Part shown: in pieces, positions 8,697 through 39,528 of the stretch | Numbering within the stretch: position 1 is the stretch's first letter | How the letters are laid out: each line of letters opens with the position of its first letter | Assembly: GCF_000430045.1 (NCBI RefSeq) | Contig: NZ_KE387023.1 | Span: forward strand, 888,838-928,365 | Direction of reading: 5' to 3' | Length of the DNA: 39,528 nt | From: Calidithermus chliarophilus DSM 9957 | GTDB taxonomy: Bacteria; Deinococcota; Deinococci; Deinococcales; Thermaceae | Translations under genes and position numbers: made by a program | The notes under the pieces: model-generated | Seen by the model: the letters and a program-made list of their open reading frames with translations, nothing else | Databases searched by the model: none | What the model was told of the DNA's origin: nothing

Positions 8697-8820
8697 CCAA
8701 TAGCTGATAGCTAAACGCCGGGTGCGGGTCGTACGTCGTACGTCCTCCGCCGTACGCAAAACGCAATACGCAATACGCGGGATGCCTTGGCCCTCGACCC
8801 TCGACCCTCGACCCTAGACA
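8697..8820. repeat. Intergenic mosaic repeat, copy 1 (ada / GGEEF convergent gap)
   Basis: Modules in order: TAGCCAATAGCTGATAGC (begins at the ada stop, 8694), AACGCCGGGTGCGGGTC, GTACGTCGTACGTCC (8731-8745), three 7-bp GCAAWAC-type units (8756-8776), and CCCTCGA repeated in tandem three times near 8790-8815. The TAGCCAATAGCTGAT stretch recurs in copy 6 (around 35094). It lies between convergent genes. Confidence 0.75.
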
Positions 8821-8847
8821 AACCCCGGGCTACGGGCCCTCGTCCAT

Positions 8848-19128: not shown

Positions 19129-19333
19129 TTGGCGCGGATAGCTGAACGCCAAACGCCGATAGCTGATAGCTGAGCGCGGGTGGTACGTCCTACGTCGTAC
19201 GTCGTACGCAAGACGCCAAACGCAAAACGCCCTGGCCTCCGGCCCTGGACCCTAGACCCTCCCCGCGTGCGGGGAGGGGTTCCTTTCACCACGAGCCTAT
19301 CGCTTACTGCTGACGGCTGACCGCTGATAGCTG
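19129..19333. repeat. Intergenic mosaic repeat, copy 2 (after ferredoxin)
   Basis: Starts within a few bases of the ferredoxin stop. Order: GATAGCTGAACGCC and GATAGCTGATAGCTGAGCGC, GGTACGTCCTACGTCGTACG with a further TCGTACG (19182-19208), 7-bp units (CAAGACGCCAAACGCAAAACGC), CCCTGGACCCTAGACCC, the 22-nt palindrome CCCTCCCCGC-GT-GCGGGGAGGG (19257-19278), CACCACGAGCC, and a closing CTGCTGACGGCTGACCGCTG with ATAGCTGATA. Sits between convergent genes. Confidence 0.8.
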
Positions 19334-19461
19334 ATACCAGATTCGGTTGGTTCGTCACCGTTCGGTGACGAACCAACCCGACCGAAGGGAGTGCTCTGGG
19401 GTTCAAAAAGATAGCCTCCGGGGCCCTTCGGATCGGATGACTATCTTTTTGAATCCGGTAT
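19334..19461. repeat. MITE-like 128-bp element with terminal and internal inverted repeats
   Basis: Ends are inverted: ATACCAGATTC (19334-19344) and GAATCCGGTAT (19451-19461), 10 of 11 matching. Inside are a perfect 16-bp stem with a 2-nt loop (GGTTGGTTCGTCACCG / CGGTGACGAACCAACC, 19345-19378) and a second perfect 13-bp pair TTCAAAAAGATAG / CTATCTTTTTGAA (19402-19414 and 19441-19453) around a 26-nt GC-rich spacer. The second pair has the A-tract/T-tract layout of a bidirectional terminator and lies between convergent genes, so a terminator role is likely too. No second copy is seen in this window and no transposase is present. Confidence 0.55.
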
Positions 19462-20699: not shown

Positions 20700-20862
20700 A
20701 AGCTCCGTTGTTTGATGGATCTCAGCTGTCAGCCTTCAGCGATAAGCTCGTGGCTCACCCTCCCCAACCCTCCCCGCCCGCGGGGAGGAAAGGAGAAGAG
20801 CGTTTAGCGTTCGGCATTCGGCTATCGGCTATGGGCTATCGACCATCGACGTCTTCCAGCAT
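20700..20862. repeat. Intergenic mosaic repeat, copy 3 (reverse orientation, inside sugar cluster)
   Basis: Reads in the minus direction: GGTCGATAGCCCATAGCCGATAGCC, AACGC-type 7-bp units (around 20797-20815), the CCCTCCCCGC-CC-GCGGGGAGG palindrome (20768-20788, one outer pair lost), GAGCCACGAGC, then GCTGAAGGCTGACAGCTGAG. The TACG module is absent. It follows the stop of the upstream minus-strand gene, as the others follow stops. Confidence 0.7.
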
Positions 20863-24124: not shown

Positions 24125-24365
24125 TGTCGGTGGCCGATAGCCGGGCGCCGGGCGCAGAGCGTGGGTCGTGCGTCGTACGTCCTACGTCGTACGCGAGACG
24201 CCAAACGCCAAACGCCAAACGCAATACGCCAAACGCCTTGTTCCCCCCTTGGCAAGGGGGGTTGGGGGGGATAAACCCTCCCCGCCGGCGGGGAGGGAAG
24301 GGGAGGGGTGAACCACAGGCCACCAGCCTTTTGCTGACGGCTGATAGCTGATAACTGACGGCTTA
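24125..24365. repeat. Intergenic mosaic repeat, copy 4 (between rfbF and TolC-like gene)
   Basis: Most complete copy. Order: GATAGCCGGGCGCCGGGCGC, GGGTCGTGCGTCGTACGTCC and TACGTCGTACG (24164-24192), six 7-bp GCCAAAC/GCAATAC-type units (about 24193-24236), hairpin CCCCCCTT-GGC-AAGGGGGG (24243-24261), GGGGGGATAAA, a perfect 22-nt palindrome (24276-24297, CCCTCCCCGCC and its complement), GGGAAGGGGAGGGGTG, ACCACAGGCCACCAGCC, then CTGACGGCTGATAGCTGATA and ACTGACGGC. The remaining part of this gap, 23951-24124, holds nothing I can assign beyond the rfbF Shine-Dalgarno. Confidence 0.82.
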
Positions 24366-26145: not shown

Positions 26146-26345
26146 GGTGTGGGACGCCGAGCGCTGATAGCTGATGGCCGGGCGCGGGGCGTACGTCGTA
26201 CGCCAAACGCCAAACGCAAGACGCGGGGCGCCTTGTCACCCCCCTTAGCAAGGGGGGCTGGGGGGGATACCCCCTCCCCGCGGGCGGGGAGGGAAGGGGT
26301 GGGGTTCACCACGAACTGACGGCTGAGGGCTGACGGCTAATAGCC
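26146..26345. repeat. Intergenic mosaic repeat, copy 5
   Basis: Order: GCTGATAGCTGATGGCCGGGC, GTACGTCGTACG (26191-26202), three 7-bp units (CCAAACGCCAAACGCAAGACGC), hairpin CCCCCCTT-AGC-AAGGGGGG (26240-26258), GGGGGGATA, the 22-nt palindrome CCCTCCCCGC-GG-GCGGGGAGGG (26272-26293), TTCACCACGA, then CTGACGGCTGAGGGCTGACGG and TAATAGCCGATAGCC. Confidence 0.82.
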
Positions 26346-33480: not shown

Positions 33481-35073
33481 ATGATCCGCAACCCCGTCCT
33501 GCCCGGCTTCAACCCCGACCCCTCCGTCGTGCGGGTGGGGGAGGACTACTACGTCGCCACCTCCACCTTCGAGTGGTTCCCCGGCGTGCAGATCCACCAC
33601 TCGCGCGACCTGGTGCACTGGCGGCTGGCGGGGCGGCCCCTGGCCCGCCGCTCGCAGCTCGACCTGCTGGGCAACCCCGACTCCGGGGGCGTCTGGGCCC
33701 CCTGCCTGAGCTACGCGGACGGCCGCTTCTGGCTCATCTACACCGACGTCAAGACCTGGGCGCTCGAGGCCCCCTTCAAGGACACCCACAACTACCTCGT
33801 CACCGCCGAGCGCGTGGAGGGGCCGTGGTCGGAGCCCGTCTACCTCAACTCCTCCGGCTTCGACCCCTCGCTCTTCCACGACGACGACGGGCGCAAGTGG
33901 CTCTTGAACATGGTCTGGGACCACCGCAAGGGCCGCAACGCCTTCGCGGGCATCCTGCTGCAGGAGTACGACCCCGTGCGGCAGGAGCTGGTGGGCCCCG
34001 TGCACAACATCTTCCGCGGCACCTGCCTGGGCGTCACCGAGGGGCCGCACCTCTACAAGCGCGGCGGCTGGTATTACCTGCTCACCGCCGAGGGGGGCAC
34101 CTCCTACGAGCACGCCGTGACCCTGGCCCGCTCGCGCTCGATCTTCGGCCCCTACGAGGTGCACCCCGCCAACCCCCTCCTCACGGCCCGGGACCACCCC
34201 GAGCTGCCCTTGCAGAAGGCGGGCCACGCCTCGCTGGTGGAGACCCCGACGGGGGAGTGGTACATGGTCCACCTCACCGGCCGGCCCCTCGACCCGCCCG
34301 GCGCCCCGCTGCGCCGCTGCAACCTGGGCCGCGAGACCGCCGTTCAGAAGCTCGAGTGGGCCGAGGACGGCTGGCCGCGCCTGGCGGGGGGTGGGAACAC
34401 CCCGCGCCTCGAGGTCGAAGCCCCCGACCTCCCGCCCCACCCCTGGCCCCCGGAGCCCGAGACCGACCCCTTCGACGCCCCCACCCTCAGCCCGCACTTC
34501 CAGACCCTGCGCCTCCCCGCCGACGGCTCCTGGCTCTCCCTCAGCGAGCGCCCCGGCTTCCTGCGCCTCTACGGGCGCGAGTCGCTGATCTCGCGGCACC
34601 GCCAGAGCCTGGTGGCCCGCCGCCTGCAACACTTCCACGCCGAGGCCGAGACCGCGCTGGAGTTCGAGCCCCGGCACTTCCAGCAGATGGCCGGGCTGGT
34701 GTGCTACTACGACACGCGGCACTGGGTCTACCTGCGCCTCAGCCGCGACGAGGAGCTGGGCAAGACCCTCAACCTGCTGGCGTGCGACGCCGGGCGCTAC
34801 GAGGAGCCGCTGGGGCGCGAGGTGAGCGTTGGGGAGGCCGCGCGGGTATACCTCAAGGTGCGCTTCGAGCGCGAAACCTTCCGCTTCTTCTACGCCCTGC
34901 AGGGCCAGGACTGGCAGCCCGTCGGCCCCGTCTTCGACTCCGGCAAGCTCTCCGACGACTACTGCAACGGCCTGTCCTTCACGGGCACCTTCATCGGCCT
35001 GTGCGCGCAGGACCTGAGCGGGGCGCGGCTGCACGCGGACTTCGACTACTTCACGTACCGGGGGCTCGAGTAG
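33481..35073 (+). CDS. Beta-xylosidase, glycoside hydrolase family 43
   Basis: This 530-residue enzyme has no signal peptide, hence is cytoplasmic. The N-terminal five-bladed propeller has NPVLPGFNPDPSVVRVGEDY (base Asp13), SSGFDPSLFHDDDGR (Asp128) and GVTEGPHLYKRGGWYYL (acid Glu187), the positions of the catalytic triad in GH43 xylosidases such as the Selenomonas enzyme. The C-terminal beta-sandwich (about 330-530; FQQMAGLVCYYDTRHWVYLR, GLSFTGTFIGLCAQDLSG) completes the active site in this subfamily. It cleaves xylobiose and xylo-oligomers to xylose by inversion. The ATG abuts the GH1 stop (TGAATG), so translation is coupled. Confidence 0.95.
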   Translation: MIRNPVLPGFNPDPSVVRVGEDYYVATSTFEWFPGVQIHHSRDLVHWRLAGRPLARRSQLDLLGNPDSGGVWAPCLSYADGRFWLIYTDVKTWALEAPFKDTHNYLVTAERVEGPWSEPVYLNSSGFDPSLFHDDDGRKWLLNMVWDHRKGRNAFAGILLQEYDPVRQELVGPVHNIFRGTCLGVTEGPHLYKRGGWYYLLTAEGGTSYEHAVTLARSRSIFGPYEVHPANPLLTARDHPELPLQKAGHASLVETPTGEWYMVHLTGRPLDPPGAPLRRCNLGRETAVQKLEWAEDGWPRLAGGGNTPRLEVEAPDLPPHPWPPEPETDPFDAPTLSPHFQTLRLPADGSWLSLSERPGFLRLYGRESLISRHRQSLVARRLQHFHAEAETALEFEPRHFQQMAGLVCYYDTRHWVYLRLSRDEELGKTLNLLACDAGRYEEPLGREVSVGEAARVYLKVRFERETFRFFYALQGQDWQPVGPVFDSGKLSDDYCNGLSFTGTFIGLCAQDLSGARLHADFDYFTYRGLE

Positions 35074-35176
35074 AGGTCGATGGTCGATAGTCGATAGCCA
35101 ATAGCTGATGGCTGATAGCCCGTGGGGAAAAGCCTTCGGCCACAGGCCACCAGCCTTCGACACGGGGGTCAATCCC
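35074..35176. repeat. Intergenic mosaic repeat, copy 6 (before GH16)
   Basis: Begins at the GH43 stop: GGTCGATGGTCGATAGTC, GATAGCCAATAGCTGATGGC, TGATAGCCCGTGG, GGCCACAGGCCACCAGCC. No 7-bp array, TACG module or palindrome. The ATAGCCAATAGCTGAT stretch equals that at the ada stop in copy 1. Confidence 0.7.
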
Positions 35177-36004: not shown

Positions 36005-36262
36005 CCGGACGCCGGGCGCGGGTCGTGCGGCGTACGTCCTACGTCGTACGCAAAACGCAAGACGCAAAACGCAAAACGCTAAACGCCGAACGCAATACGC
36101 AAAACGCGAGACGCAAGACGACCCTTCTTCACCCCCCTTAGCAAGGGGGGCGGGGGGGATAAACCCTCCCCGCGGGCGGGGAGGGAAGGGGAGGGGTGCT
36201 TTTCACCACGGGCCACACGCCACGTGCCTCCCGCTGACGGCTGACCGCCAATAACTCACTCG
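36005..36262. repeat. Intergenic mosaic repeat, copy 7, with ten 7-bp units
   Basis: Order: ATAGCCGGACGCCGGGCGCG overlapping the GH16 stop, GTCGTGCGGCGTACGTCC and TACGTCGTACG (36022-36050), ten consecutive 7-bp units GCNNRAC-like from 36050 to 36119 (GCAAAAC, GCAAGAC, GCTAAAC, GCCGAAC, GCAATAC, GCGAGAC variants), hairpin CCCCCCTT-AGC-AAGGGGGG (36132-36150), GGGGGGGATAAA, the 22-nt palindrome CCCTCCCCGC-GG-GCGGGGAGGG (36164-36185), TTCACCACGGGCCACACGCC, and CGCTGACGGCTGACCGCC. Confidence 0.85.
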
Positions 36263-36274
36263 AGGAGATCGATT

Positions 36275-38485
36275 GTGATCAAACGATGGAGATTCACCCT
36301 CGCCTGTGCCGTGCTGCTGGGCTCTTGCCCTGCGCTGGCCCAGCCCCTCTACAAAGACCCCGCGCAGCCGGTGGAGAAGCGCGTCGCCGACCTGCTCGCG
36401 CGCATGACGCTGGAGGAGAAGCTGGGGCAGATGACGCAGGTGGCGGTGTCCAAGCTGATGTCGGACGGCTGGGGGCTGGGGCCGCTGAAGGGGGAGTTGC
36501 TCGAGCGCTACCTCGTGCAGCGCGGCATCGGCTCGGTGCTCTCGGGCGGGGGGATGGGGCCGGTGCCCAACACGCCCCGCGCCTGGGCCGAGATGACCAA
36601 CGCCATCCAGCGGGCGGCGGTGGAGAAGGGCCGCCTGGGCATCCCCTTGCTTTACGGCGTGGACGCGGTGCACGGGCACAACAACGTCGTGGGGGCCACC
36701 CTCTATCCCCATAGCCTGGGCCTGGCGGCCACCTGGAACCCGGCCCTGGTGGAGCAGGTGGCCCGGCGGGTGGGGCAGGAACTGCGGGCCACGGGCACGC
36801 TGTGGAACTTCGCCCCCGTGGCCGACCTGGGTCGTGACCCGCGCTGGGGCCGCTTCTACGAGACCTTCGGCGAGGACCCGCTGCTGGCGGGTAGCCTGGT
36901 GGCCGCGACGGTGCGGGGCCTGCAGGCTGGCCGCGTCGCCGCGACGCTCAAGCACTTCACCGGCTACGGCCAGCCCCTCGGCGGCACCGACCGCAGCCCG
37001 GCCTTCCTGGCCCCCCGCACCCTTCAGGAGGTGTGGCTGCCGCCCTTCCGGGCGGGCCTCGAGGCCGGCGCCCTCACGGTGATGGCCAACAGCGGCTCAC
37101 TCAACGGCGTGCCGGTGCACGCCTCGCGCTACCTGCTCACCGACGTGCTGCGCGGCCAGATGGGCTTCAAAGGCGTGGTGATCTCCGACTGGAACGACAT
37201 CGACAAGCTCGTGGGCGACCACAAGGCCGCCGCCGGCTTCGCCGACGCCGTGGCCATGAGCATCAACGCCGGCGTGGACGTGTACATGGTGCCCATGGAG
37301 GTCGAGCGCTACCTCCAGACCCTCAAAGAGCTCGTCGAGGCCGGCCGGATCTCCCGCGCCCGCGTCGACGAGGCGGCAGGCCGTGTCCTGTGGCTGAAGT
37401 TCCAGCTCGGCCTCTTCGAGCGCCCCTACGTCGAGGCGGCCGAGGCCGAGAAGGTGGTCGAGGCCCAGCGCCCCCTGGCCAAGCAGGCCGCCCTCGAGTC
37501 CGTCACCCTGCTGGAAAACGCCGCCTTCACCCTGCCGCTCACCAACGTCAAGACCCTGCTCGTCACCGGCCCCGCCGCCACCGACAAGACCATGCAGATG
37601 GGCGGCTGGAGCATCGACTGGCAGGGCAAGGAGGGGGCCAAGGCCCCCGGGGCGACGGTGCTCGAGGGCCTCCAGAAGGGCGCCCCCCAGGGCGTGAAGG
37701 TGGCCTACGCCGACCCCAAGGACGCCAGGGCCCTCGCCGCCGCGGTCAGGGCCTCCGACGCGGTGGTGGTGGCCCTGGGCGAGAAGCCCTACGCCGAGAA
37801 CGAGGGCAACAACCTCACCGGCGAGCTCCCCGCCGAGCAGTACAAGCTGCTGCGTGACCTCAAGGCCCTGGGCAAGCCGGTCGTGCTGGTGCTGCTCGCC
37901 GGCCGCCCCCTGGCCTTCCCCGACGACGCGTGGCTCGTCCCCAAGGCCATCCTCATGGCCTACCTCCCCGGCTCTGAAGCGGGCAGCGCCCTGGCCGACG
38001 TGCTCTTCGGCCGCCACAACCCCAGCGGCCGCCTGCCCTTCACCTGGCCCAAGCTCTTCGGCCAGGTGCCCTTCACCTACGACCGCTACCCCGACATCTA
38101 CCCCAAGGCCGAGCCGCTCTACCCCTTCGGCTACGGCCTGAGCTACACCGACTTCACCTACCGCCTGCAGGCCGCCCGAGCCACCGCCAACGCCGTGGAG
38201 GTGGACGTCGAGGTCCGCAACACCGGCAAACGCGCCGGCAGCGACGTCGTCCAGCTCTACACCCGCTTCCCCCCGCTCGGCCTCCTAGCCCCCCGCGAAC
38301 GCCTGGTGGCCTTCACCAAGGTGAACCTCGAGCCCGGCCAAACCCGCACCCTCAAGCTCACCGCCCCTCTAGACCGCTTCGCCCTGGTGCCAGGCGACGT
38401 GTTCAGCCTCGAGCTGCCCCGCGTGCTGCCTGGGCGCTACGTTTTGCGGGTGGGGGAGCAGACGGTGGGGGTGGAGGTGCGGTGA
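36275..38485 (+). CDS. Exported beta-glucosidase, glycoside hydrolase family 3
   Basis: This 736-residue enzyme has a signal peptide ending ALA-QPLY near residue 22; Cys18 in LLGSC could alternatively be a lipoprotein site. The N-terminal barrel has ARMTLEEKLGQMTQ, LYGVDAVHGHNNV, NFAPVADLGRDPRWGRFYET, TLKHFTGYG and GVVISDWND with nucleophile Asp305. The alpha/beta sandwich has VVVALGEKPYAENEGNN, where one of the Glu is the likely acid/base, as in barley ExoI-type enzymes. The C-terminal fibronectin-III-like domain has EVRNTGKRAGSDVVQLY and ERLVAFTKVNLEPGQT. It removes glucose from beta-gluco-oligosaccharides, matching GH16 products. GTG start with GAGGAG nearby. It is preceded by copy 7 and followed by copy 8. 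Confidence 0.95.
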   Translation: MIKRWRFTLACAVLLGSCPALAQPLYKDPAQPVEKRVADLLARMTLEEKLGQMTQVAVSKLMSDGWGLGPLKGELLERYLVQRGIGSVLSGGGMGPVPNTPRAWAEMTNAIQRAAVEKGRLGIPLLYGVDAVHGHNNVVGATLYPHSLGLAATWNPALVEQVARRVGQELRATGTLWNFAPVADLGRDPRWGRFYETFGEDPLLAGSLVAATVRGLQAGRVAATLKHFTGYGQPLGGTDRSPAFLAPRTLQEVWLPPFRAGLEAGALTVMANSGSLNGVPVHASRYLLTDVLRGQMGFKGVVISDWNDIDKLVGDHKAAAGFADAVAMSINAGVDVYMVPMEVERYLQTLKELVEAGRISRARVDEAAGRVLWLKFQLGLFERPYVEAAEAEKVVEAQRPLAKQAALESVTLLENAAFTLPLTNVKTLLVTGPAATDKTMQMGGWSIDWQGKEGAKAPGATVLEGLQKGAPQGVKVAYADPKDARALAAAVRASDAVVVALGEKPYAENEGNNLTGELPAEQYKLLRDLKALGKPVVLVLLAGRPLAFPDDAWLVPKAILMAYLPGSEAGSALADVLFGRHNPSGRLPFTWPKLFGQVPFTYDRYPDIYPKAEPLYPFGYGLSYTDFTYRLQAARATANAVEVDVEVRNTGKRAGSDVVQLYTRFPPLGLLAPRERLVAFTKVNLEPGQTRTLKLTAPLDRFALVPGDVFSLELPRVLPGRYVLRVGEQTVGVEVR

Positions 38486-38560
38486 GGGTCGATAGTCGAA
38501 CGCCCAACGCCGAACGCTGAACGCCGAACGCCGAACGCCGAACGCTGAACGCCATTCGGG
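38486..38560. repeat. Intergenic mosaic repeat, copy 8: eight perfect-register 7-bp units
   Basis: Directly after the GH3 stop: GGTCGATAGT, then eight 7-bp units CGAACGC/CCAACGC/TGAACGC (38497-38552), ending CATTCGG. There is no TACG module and no palindrome. The unit equals the GCNNAAC unit of copy 7 in a different register. Confidence 0.75.
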
Positions 38561-38673
38561 ATCAATTATCCACTGGGGTTGTGACCGACCCGACAGCTAA
38601 CTACAGCCCCACTCCCCAGGGGACACCCGCTCGACCTGCGAGCCCGTCCCCGGCCGGGGTGTGCGGCTCACGC

Positions 38674-38789
38674 GGGAGGGGGTGGCGGGGTGTCGGGGGA
38701 GCCCAGGGGGAGCAGGTTTCCGGCGTATGCCGGGTCGCGTACCGCGATGCCCTCGCCATGTGGAATGGCCTCCCCCTAGCTCCCCCGAC
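38674..38789. other. Structured element: G-quadruplex motif and cloverleaf-like inverted repeats
   Basis: A G4-type motif GGG-A-GGGGG-TGGC-GGGG-TGTC-GGGGG spans 38674-38699. Overlapping it, 38692-38712 (GTCGGGGGAGC, CC, AGGGGGAG) pairs with 38770-38789 (CTCCCCCT, AGCTCCCCCGAC) as a stem of about 19 bp with one small bulge. Inside are three consecutive perfect 5-bp hairpins: CCGGC-gtat-GCCGG (38720-38733), TCGCG-tac-CGCGA (38735-38747), GCCAT-gtgga-ATGGC (38755-38769). The result is a four-way, cloverleaf-like fold upstream of the XylF-like gene. It is not a tRNA. The rest of the 38486-38901 gap holds mosaic repeat copy 8 and no gene I can support. Confidence 0.5.
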
Positions 38790-38901
38790 GGCGGAACCGT
38801 GGTCGCCAAACCATAGCACCGCAGCACACCCCCCGCCAAAAGAGAAACGAACAGAGCGAACACGAAACCCGCCCCTACCCGTGCTGAGCTGCTCGAGTAA
38901 G

Positions 38902-39528
38902 ATGGCGGCACCGATGATGCTCAAGCCTTCCTGGACCACCTTGCGGCTCGCTGCCTTGTTGACCCTGCTGGCAAACGCCCTGCTCCCGAGCACCGCACAA
39001 CCGTCCAAGGTGACGGTGGGGGTGAGCTGGGGACACCTCGAGGGCGAGTGGAAGATCCACGAGGACGCGCTGCGGGCCCGGCTGGGCTCGCTGGGGGCGC
39101 AGTACACCCGCACCGACGCCAAAGGCTCGTCCGCCCAGCAGCTAAGGGACATGGACGCGCTCGCCGCCAAGGGCGCGGACGTGCTGATCGTGGTCGCCGC
39201 CAACCCCGAAGCCCTCCGCCCCGGCCTCGCCCGCGCCCAGGCCGCCGGCATCCCGGTGGTGGCCTACGACCGCCCGGTGCCCGACCCCGCCGCCTTCTAC
39301 GTGGGCTTCGACGAGCTCGAGGCCGGCCGGATGCAAGCCAGGGCGGTGTACGCCGTCCGGCCGCACGGTCGCTACGCGCTGTTGCTCGGGCCGGGCGCCG
39401 AACGGGTGCGTCAGGGGCTGCTCGAGCGGCTCGAGGCCGCCCTCAAGGCCGGCGACGTCCGGGTGGTGGCCGAGCGCTCGGTCGCGGAGCGCAGGCCCGA
39501 GGCCGCCCGGCAGGCCATGGCCGAGATC
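38902..39528 (+). CDS. XylF-like sugar-binding protein of an ABC transporter, 3'-truncated
   Basis: 209 codons are visible and the frame is open to the window edge. Signal peptide: LKPSWTTLRLAALLTLLANA, cleaved near STA-QPS. The mature part follows the D-xylose/ribose-binding family: KVTVGVSWGHLEGEWKIHED, LGSLGAQYTRTDAKGSSAQQ, ALAAKGADVLIVVAANPEAL, AAGIPVVAYDRPVPDPAAFY, VGFDELEAGRMQARAVY, GRYALLLGPGAERVRQGLLE. The WKxHxD, DVLIVV, AYDRPV and FYVGFDE blocks match XylF closely. ATG 38902, 38914 or 38917 are possible starts; TAAGAT at 38898-38903 would be a leaderless -10 for 38914. A pentose-binding protein completes the xylan theme: GH10 and GH43 release xylose. Confidence 0.85.
   Translation, partial: MAAPMMLKPSWTTLRLAALLTLLANALLPSTAQPSKVTVGVSWGHLEGEWKIHEDALRARLGSLGAQYTRTDAKGSSAQQLRDMDALAAKGADVLIVVAANPEALRPGLARAQAAGIPVVAYDRPVPDPAAFYVGFDELEAGRMQARAVYAVRPHGRYALLLGPGAERVRQGLLERLEAALKAGDVRVVAERSVAERRPEAARQAMAEI

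What the first reader, a model, noticed from the sequence alone, without database searches (positions are those of the whole stretch)
38674..38789. Cloverleaf-like element with an overlapping G-quadruplex motif upstream of a xylose-binding-protein gene
An outer stem of about 19 bp encloses three separate 5-bp hairpins in 57 nt, and the 5' strand of the stem belongs to a four-run G4 motif, so two folds compete. Position about 110 bp before a sugar-binding protein gene suggests either a structured leader RNA (switch) or a mobile DNA element.
Basis: seen in the sequence. Interest (0 to 1): 0.6.

Follow-up and report, generated by a model that had tools for sequence, protein, structure and literature searches.

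The report
Dispersed modular hairpin repeat behind genes
The folded DNA element in front of the sugar-binding gene is one of about forty scattered, mix-and-match copies of a short non-coding repeat that sits just behind the ends of unrelated genes in this hot-spring bacterium, so it is a repeat of a known general type rather than a sugar-sensing switch.

Summary
It is part of a larger element, about 38486-38832. About 44 copies lie at some 40 unrelated loci of this genome; C. roseus has a few, and a complete genome of another genus has two, at loci shared with this one. It matches no Rfam family. Copies are modular: heptad tract, 5' module, optional central hairpins, a 3' hairpin that may hold a 42-bp insert (two of the three hairpins seen), C-rich tail. 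The heptad end abuts the stop codon of a co-directional upstream gene in 25 of 31 scored copies; downstream genes are unrelated and randomly oriented. That argues strongly against a sugar-gene leader switch. The outer stem shows compensatory changes, but half of the copies with the 42-bp insert carry mismatched arm alleles, whereas copies without it have matched arms; copies therefore seem to recombine inside the shared insert. Best reading: a genus-restricted, non-autonomous mosaic interspersed repeat, comparable to Deinococcus SNRs or pneumococcal BOX elements. How it spreads, and whether the folded RNA does anything, is unproven.

The parts
36275..38485 (+). upstream gene, glycoside hydrolase family 3; its stop codon abuts the element
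   Evidence: Pfam PF00933/PF01915/PF14310
38486..38555 (+). heptad tract (GTCGATA, GAACGCC and similar), beginning at the stop codon
   Evidence: period-7 scan; same layout in most copies; tract length differs between orthologous copies in multiples of 7
38565..38690 (+). 5' module (ATTATCCACTGGGG...GGGAGGGGGTGGCGGGG); hairpin stem 38574-38582/38603-38611; most conserved part, used for model R1
   Evidence: alignment A1, 40 copies, mean column identity 85%; pair counts
38674..38699 (+). G-quadruplex motif GGGAGGGGGTGGCGGGGTGTCGGGGG
   Evidence: pattern scan; a G4 motif occurs in 25 of 38 copies
38692..38712 (+). 5' arm of the outer stem of the 3' module
38713..38754 (+). 42-bp optional insert holding two of the three small hairpins; absent from the simple-hairpin copies
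   Evidence: alignment A2: 26 of 37 copies have it, 11 lack it
38755..38769 (+). apical hairpin GCCAT-GTGGA-ATGGC, present in most copies, with or without the insert (alternative form GTGAT..ATCGC, other loop in L023)
   Evidence: alignment A2; C-G/G-C swap at pair 73-83
38770..38789 (+). 3' arm of the outer stem
38790..38832 (+). 3' tail (GGCGGA...CCAAACCA...CACC...CCCC), C-rich; can pair with the G-rich run near 38680 in single-copy folds
   Evidence: alignment A2; folds; inverted pair I2 38656-38667/38821-38832
38903..39528 (+). downstream gene, periplasmic sugar-binding protein (runs off the window); not consistently associated with the element
   Evidence: Pfam PF13407; flanking genes of other copies are unrelated

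Best explanation
The element is one copy of a genus-restricted, non-coding, modular interspersed repeat of nested hairpins. Copies lie in intergenic DNA, in most cases directly behind the stop codon of a co-directional gene, anchored through a tandem heptad tract. Shown: multi-copy dispersal at unrelated loci, modular make-up, the positional and orientation bias, and mosaic combinations of stem arms among copies that share the 42-bp insert. Inferred: the family spread as a non-autonomous, MITE- or SNR-like element copied in trans into heptad-bearing gene ends, after which homologous recombination reshuffled its modules. Where the upstream gene is read through, the folded element becomes part of that gene's 3' UTR; any effect on termination or stability would be secondary.
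For: 70 matching stretches at about 40 loci of the own genome, fetched and read. Modules present or absent in different combinations; the inner part of the central hairpin is inverted in one copy (L055). Same locus, different modules: L042 versus L073 and L046 versus L070. Upstream gene co-directional in 25 of 31 (p 0.0009), mostly 0-12 nt from stop codon to heptads; downstream 14 of 32. Mismatched arm alleles in 13 of 26 copies with the 42-bp insert and 0 of 11 without it once L023 is re-registered (p 0.003; 1 of 11, p 0.03 as aligned). Restricted distribution: among 111 genomes of the phylum only the own genome, C. roseus (4) and G007 (2) match clearly; an exact pattern in 84,980 species gave only C. 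roseus. No Rfam match.
Against: No autonomous partner found: the six Y1 transposase loci share no element ends and the single RT gene lies in an unrelated locus. No consistent target-site duplication. The three C. roseus sites that lack the core carry heptads or possible scraps of it, so loss there cannot be told from absence. Copy numbers in draft assemblies are uncertain; several own copies contain 100-N gaps.
Confidence: 0.8

Rival explanations
1. Dispersal without any transposase: the core is carried between intergenic regions by homologous recombination or gene conversion, using the abundant heptad tracts on the left and shared palindromic repeats on the right as homology.
For: Heptad tracts are very abundant (480 pattern hits against 55 for the control), occur alone behind stop codons and flank the core; arm alleles are reassorted; L035 and its C. 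roseus ortholog continue on the right into a CCCTCCCC..GGGAGGGG-type hairpin like that of the element-free composites.
Against: Right flanks of most copies are unique within a few bases, so right-hand homology is missing at most sites; heptads are short and imperfect.
Confidence: 0.3
2. A selected 3'-UTR element: the heptads and the hairpins act in transcription termination or protect the mRNA 3' end of the upstream gene.
For: Position directly behind stop codons in sense orientation; stable fold (median z -3.1); compensatory changes in the outer stem (40 cells against 17 in shuffles).
Against: Half of the copies with the 42-bp insert have partly mismatched arms; central modules are optional; copies decay or are truncated in C. 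roseus; no T-run terminator on the + strand within the element; helices of the 5' module show no covariation.
Confidence: 0.25
3. A cis-acting leader RNA (riboswitch-like) of the sugar-binding-protein gene, with G4 and cloverleaf as alternative states.
For: Structure about 110 bp before the gene, G4 overlapping the stem.
Against: Copies stand beside unrelated genes, and the downstream gene is in either orientation; no Rfam match; no sigma-70-like promoter in the region.
Confidence: 0.03
4. Remnant of an RNA-guided or retro element (IscB/TnpB omega RNA, HEARO, group II intron).
For: Highly structured, multi-copy, sits at gene 3' ends; IS200/IS605-type Y1 transposases and one RT exist in the genome.
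Against: No HEARO, group I or group II intron match in Rfam, also at E up to 1 on eight loci; IS200/IS605 flanks do not resemble the element.
Confidence: 0.04

Closest known systems
Mosaic small noncoding repeats (SNRs) of Deinococcus radiodurans
   Same: Same phylum; dozens to hundreds of short non-coding repeats of 'unusual, mosaic structure', species-restricted (295 of at least 9 types, absent from D. geothermalis; oligo-G repeats also reported there) (PMC1978522).
   Different: Sequence relationship not tested; no report read here of heptad tracts abutting stop codons or of an orientation rule.
BOX elements of Streptococcus pneumoniae
   Same: Interspersed composite repeat with terminal modules and optional internal modules, strong predicted secondary structure (PMC3049150).
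   Different: BOX elements have terminal inverted repeats and cause target-site duplications, with an IS proposed as mobiliser; neither was found here. The hosts are unrelated.
REP/BIME palindromes with RAYT (Y1) transposases
   Same: Extragenic palindromes in many copies; Y1 transposases exist in this genome.
   Different: REPs are 20-40 bp (PMC3733652 abstract); the element is about 210-425 nt without its heptads and no Y1 transposase locus shares its ends.
Heptanucleotide TAACTGA arrays of Beggiatoaceae and cyanobacteria
   Same: Tandem 7-bp units, intergenic, indels in steps of 7 (PMC4679880).
   Different: In the Beggiatoaceae genome those lie mostly just before start codons; the heptads here follow stop codons.

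Membership tests
Riboswitch / structured leader RNA | located in the 5' leader of one gene class | tested here: not met
   flanking genes unrelated, downstream gene co-directional in 14 of 32
Riboswitch / structured leader RNA | matches a curated RNA family | tested here: not met
   no Rfam hit to the element at gathering scores or at E up to 1 on eight loci
Mosaic small noncoding repeats (Deinococcus SNR) | dispersed non-coding multi-copy repeat with mosaic structure | tested here: met
Mosaic small noncoding repeats (Deinococcus SNR) | sequence homology to a described SNR type | not tested
   SNR sequences were not at hand; the exact core pattern was found only in C. roseus among 84,980 species
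MITE (including BOX) | terminal inverted repeats | tested here: inconclusive
   only short complementarity between the G-rich part and the C-rich tail; true ends not fixed
MITE (including BOX) | target-site duplication at empty sites | tested here: inconclusive
   three C. roseus sites without the core, but with heptads or possible scraps of it
MITE (including BOX) | ends shared with an autonomous IS of the host | tested here: inconclusive
   not found at the six Y1 transposase loci; other transposases of the genome were not surveyed
REP/RAYT | 20-40 bp palindrome tagged GTAG or CGTC, RAYT nearby | tested here: not met
   size and layout differ; Y1 loci unrelated
HEARO / omega RNA / group II intron | match to the Rfam models | tested here: not met

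The most novel reading that the evidence does not exclude
The heptad tracts behind stop codons and the hairpin cores are parts of one genome-wide 3'-end system peculiar to this genus: heptads as a landing and loading site (for example one pyrimidine-C step per 7 nt, a Rho-like spacing) and interchangeable structured cores that set termination or mRNA stability, spread by a dedicated machinery not yet known.
Probability: 0.1. Interest if true: 0.75.

Novelty: new variant of a known kind. Interest (0 to 1): 0.35.

Why it matters
It removes a false riboswitch candidate and describes a repeat family, undescribed as far as I could find, in the Thermaceae. Its anatomy (stop-codon-anchored heptads, an optional 42-bp insert inside a palindrome, arm alleles reassorted across that insert) gives a tractable case for how structured bacterial repeats evolve by module insertion and recombination. 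It also warns that compensatory changes among repeat copies can come from exchange of palindrome arms, not only from selection on an RNA fold. Several copies contain assembly gaps.

Tried and rejected
Rfam at gathering and permissive thresholds: nothing on the element. tRNA-like element: ARAGORN none. Plasmid records: no match. Link to IS200/IS605 Y1 loci: no shared ends. Link to the reverse transcriptase: one gene, unrelated locus. The weak model hit in G055 (E 9e-4) reads as chance; the small matches in G010, G012, G024 and G047 read as chance in coding sequence. G013 (L061) holds a stand-alone relative of the central hairpin module (72% over 87 bp). Some helix positions given to model R1 were set imprecisely; its matches rest mainly on sequence. 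Covariation of the 5' module: none above shuffles.

Full report
Observation. The stem, the three hairpins and the G4 motif are in the sequence as described. On its own the 116-nt stretch is not remarkable against dinucleotide shuffles (z -1.2), because the region is very G+C rich, and G4 motifs are frequent here (24 in the window). The whole 287-nt element does fold better than shuffles (z -4.3; median -3.1 over 28 copies).

Copies. A search of the own genome with window 38480-38920 gave 70 matching stretches, which group into about 44 copies at about 40 places (sequences). The window copy has the 5' and 3' modules side by side; many others have one or two hairpin modules between them. Rfam, tRNA and plasmid searches gave nothing.

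Anatomy. In order: a heptad tract; a 5' module (window 38565-38690) with a 9-bp hairpin and a small GGCCG/CGGCT hairpin; optional central hairpins, whose inner part is inverted in L055; a 3' hairpin whose simple form is a near-perfect palindrome and which in 26 of 37 copies carries a 42-bp insert (window 38713-38754); and a C-rich tail.

Position. With a simple codon-usage gene call, the gene on the heptad side is co-directional in 25 of 31 scored copies (binomial p 0.0009) and the heptads usually begin within 12 nt of its stop codon; the gene on the other side is co-directional in 14 of 32. Genes flanking ten copies include uvrC, cytidylate kinase, DXP reductoisomerase, a prepilin peptidase, a histidine kinase, an iron-sulfur protein and an aldehyde dehydrogenase. 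The association is with gene ends, not with sugar genes.

Structure and recombination. On alignment A2 the outer stem and apical hairpin form standard pairs in 95.7% of cells (shuffled 91.4%), with 40 double-change cells against 17 in shuffles, and they exceed every slid version. But 13 of 26 copies with the 42-bp insert combine arm alleles that do not match at one or two inner positions, while copies without it are matched (0 of 11 after L023 is re-registered, p 0.003; 1 of 11, p 0.03 as aligned). The simplest reading is crossover or conversion within the shared insert. The 5' module helices are nearly invariant apart from a poorly paired inner one, and show no covariation, so they say little for or against an RNA role.

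Relatives. Model R1 on 111 genomes of the phylum matched clearly only the own genome (31 listed, the number scored), C. roseus (4, named through) and G007 (2). G007's two copies lie in loci nearly identical in flanks to the window and to L042 (99% and 97% identity), which points to shared or transferred segments; its identity as Meiothermus silvanus is my inference from genome size. Orthologous copies in C. roseus differ in heptad number by multiples of seven and in modules, or are truncated or decayed. Three C. roseus sites lack the core but hold heptads or possible scraps of it, so insertion and loss cannot be told apart there.

Mechanism. Shown: dispersal, modularity, position and orientation, mosaic arm combinations. 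Inferred: copying in trans as a non-autonomous element; no mobiliser was found among six Y1 loci or the one RT. An alternative without a transposase is recombination between heptad-flanked gene ends; heptads are abundant enough for it (480 hits in the own genome, 52 in C. roseus, at most 9 elsewhere), but most right flanks are unique.

Known kinds. The closest are the mosaic SNRs of D. radiodurans (PMC1978522) and the modular BOX elements (PMC3049150). I found no description of this family in the papers searched, which covers open-licence papers only. Verdict: a new variant of a known kind, modest interest.

Noticed in passing
window 8748-8822, 19145-19338, 20807-20841 (-), 24159-24237, 26188-26219, 35074-35106, 36046-36120: Tandem heptad tracts without the core. 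Most appear to follow a stop codon in sense orientation (at 35074 the tract starts on the base after the stop at 35073). The pattern GTCGATRGTCGATRG has 480 hits in this genome, 52 in C. roseus and at most 9 in other genomes of the phylum.
   Followed up: partly
window 24240-24330, 26230-26320, 36120-36250; L045 3800-3900: A second composite behind heptads: CCCCCCTTnnCAAGGGGGG..GGGGGGGATAAA, then CCCTCCCCGCnnGCGGGGAGGG, then further heptads (GCTGACGGCTGATAGC). Many cores share the GGGATAAA edge.
   Followed up: partly
L055 1960-2420 (-): The inner part of the central hairpin module is inverted relative to all other copies read, between short inverted repeats.
   Followed up: no
L061 1490-1600 (genome G013): A stand-alone relative of the central hairpin module in another genus, without the rest of the element.
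   Followed up: no
L047 and L050, upstream of the core: A GTAGGGACGCGAGGCCTCGCGTCCCTAC palindrome inserted between heptads and core; similar GGGCGAACACGAGGTTCGCCC palindromes follow some copies.
   Followed up: no
window about 38355-39040 versus G007:C1:680580-681280: The stretch around the element, from the end of the GH3 gene into the sugar-binding-protein gene, is about 99% identical in a genome of another genus (G007), which suggests recent transfer of the segment with the element inside.
   Followed up: partly
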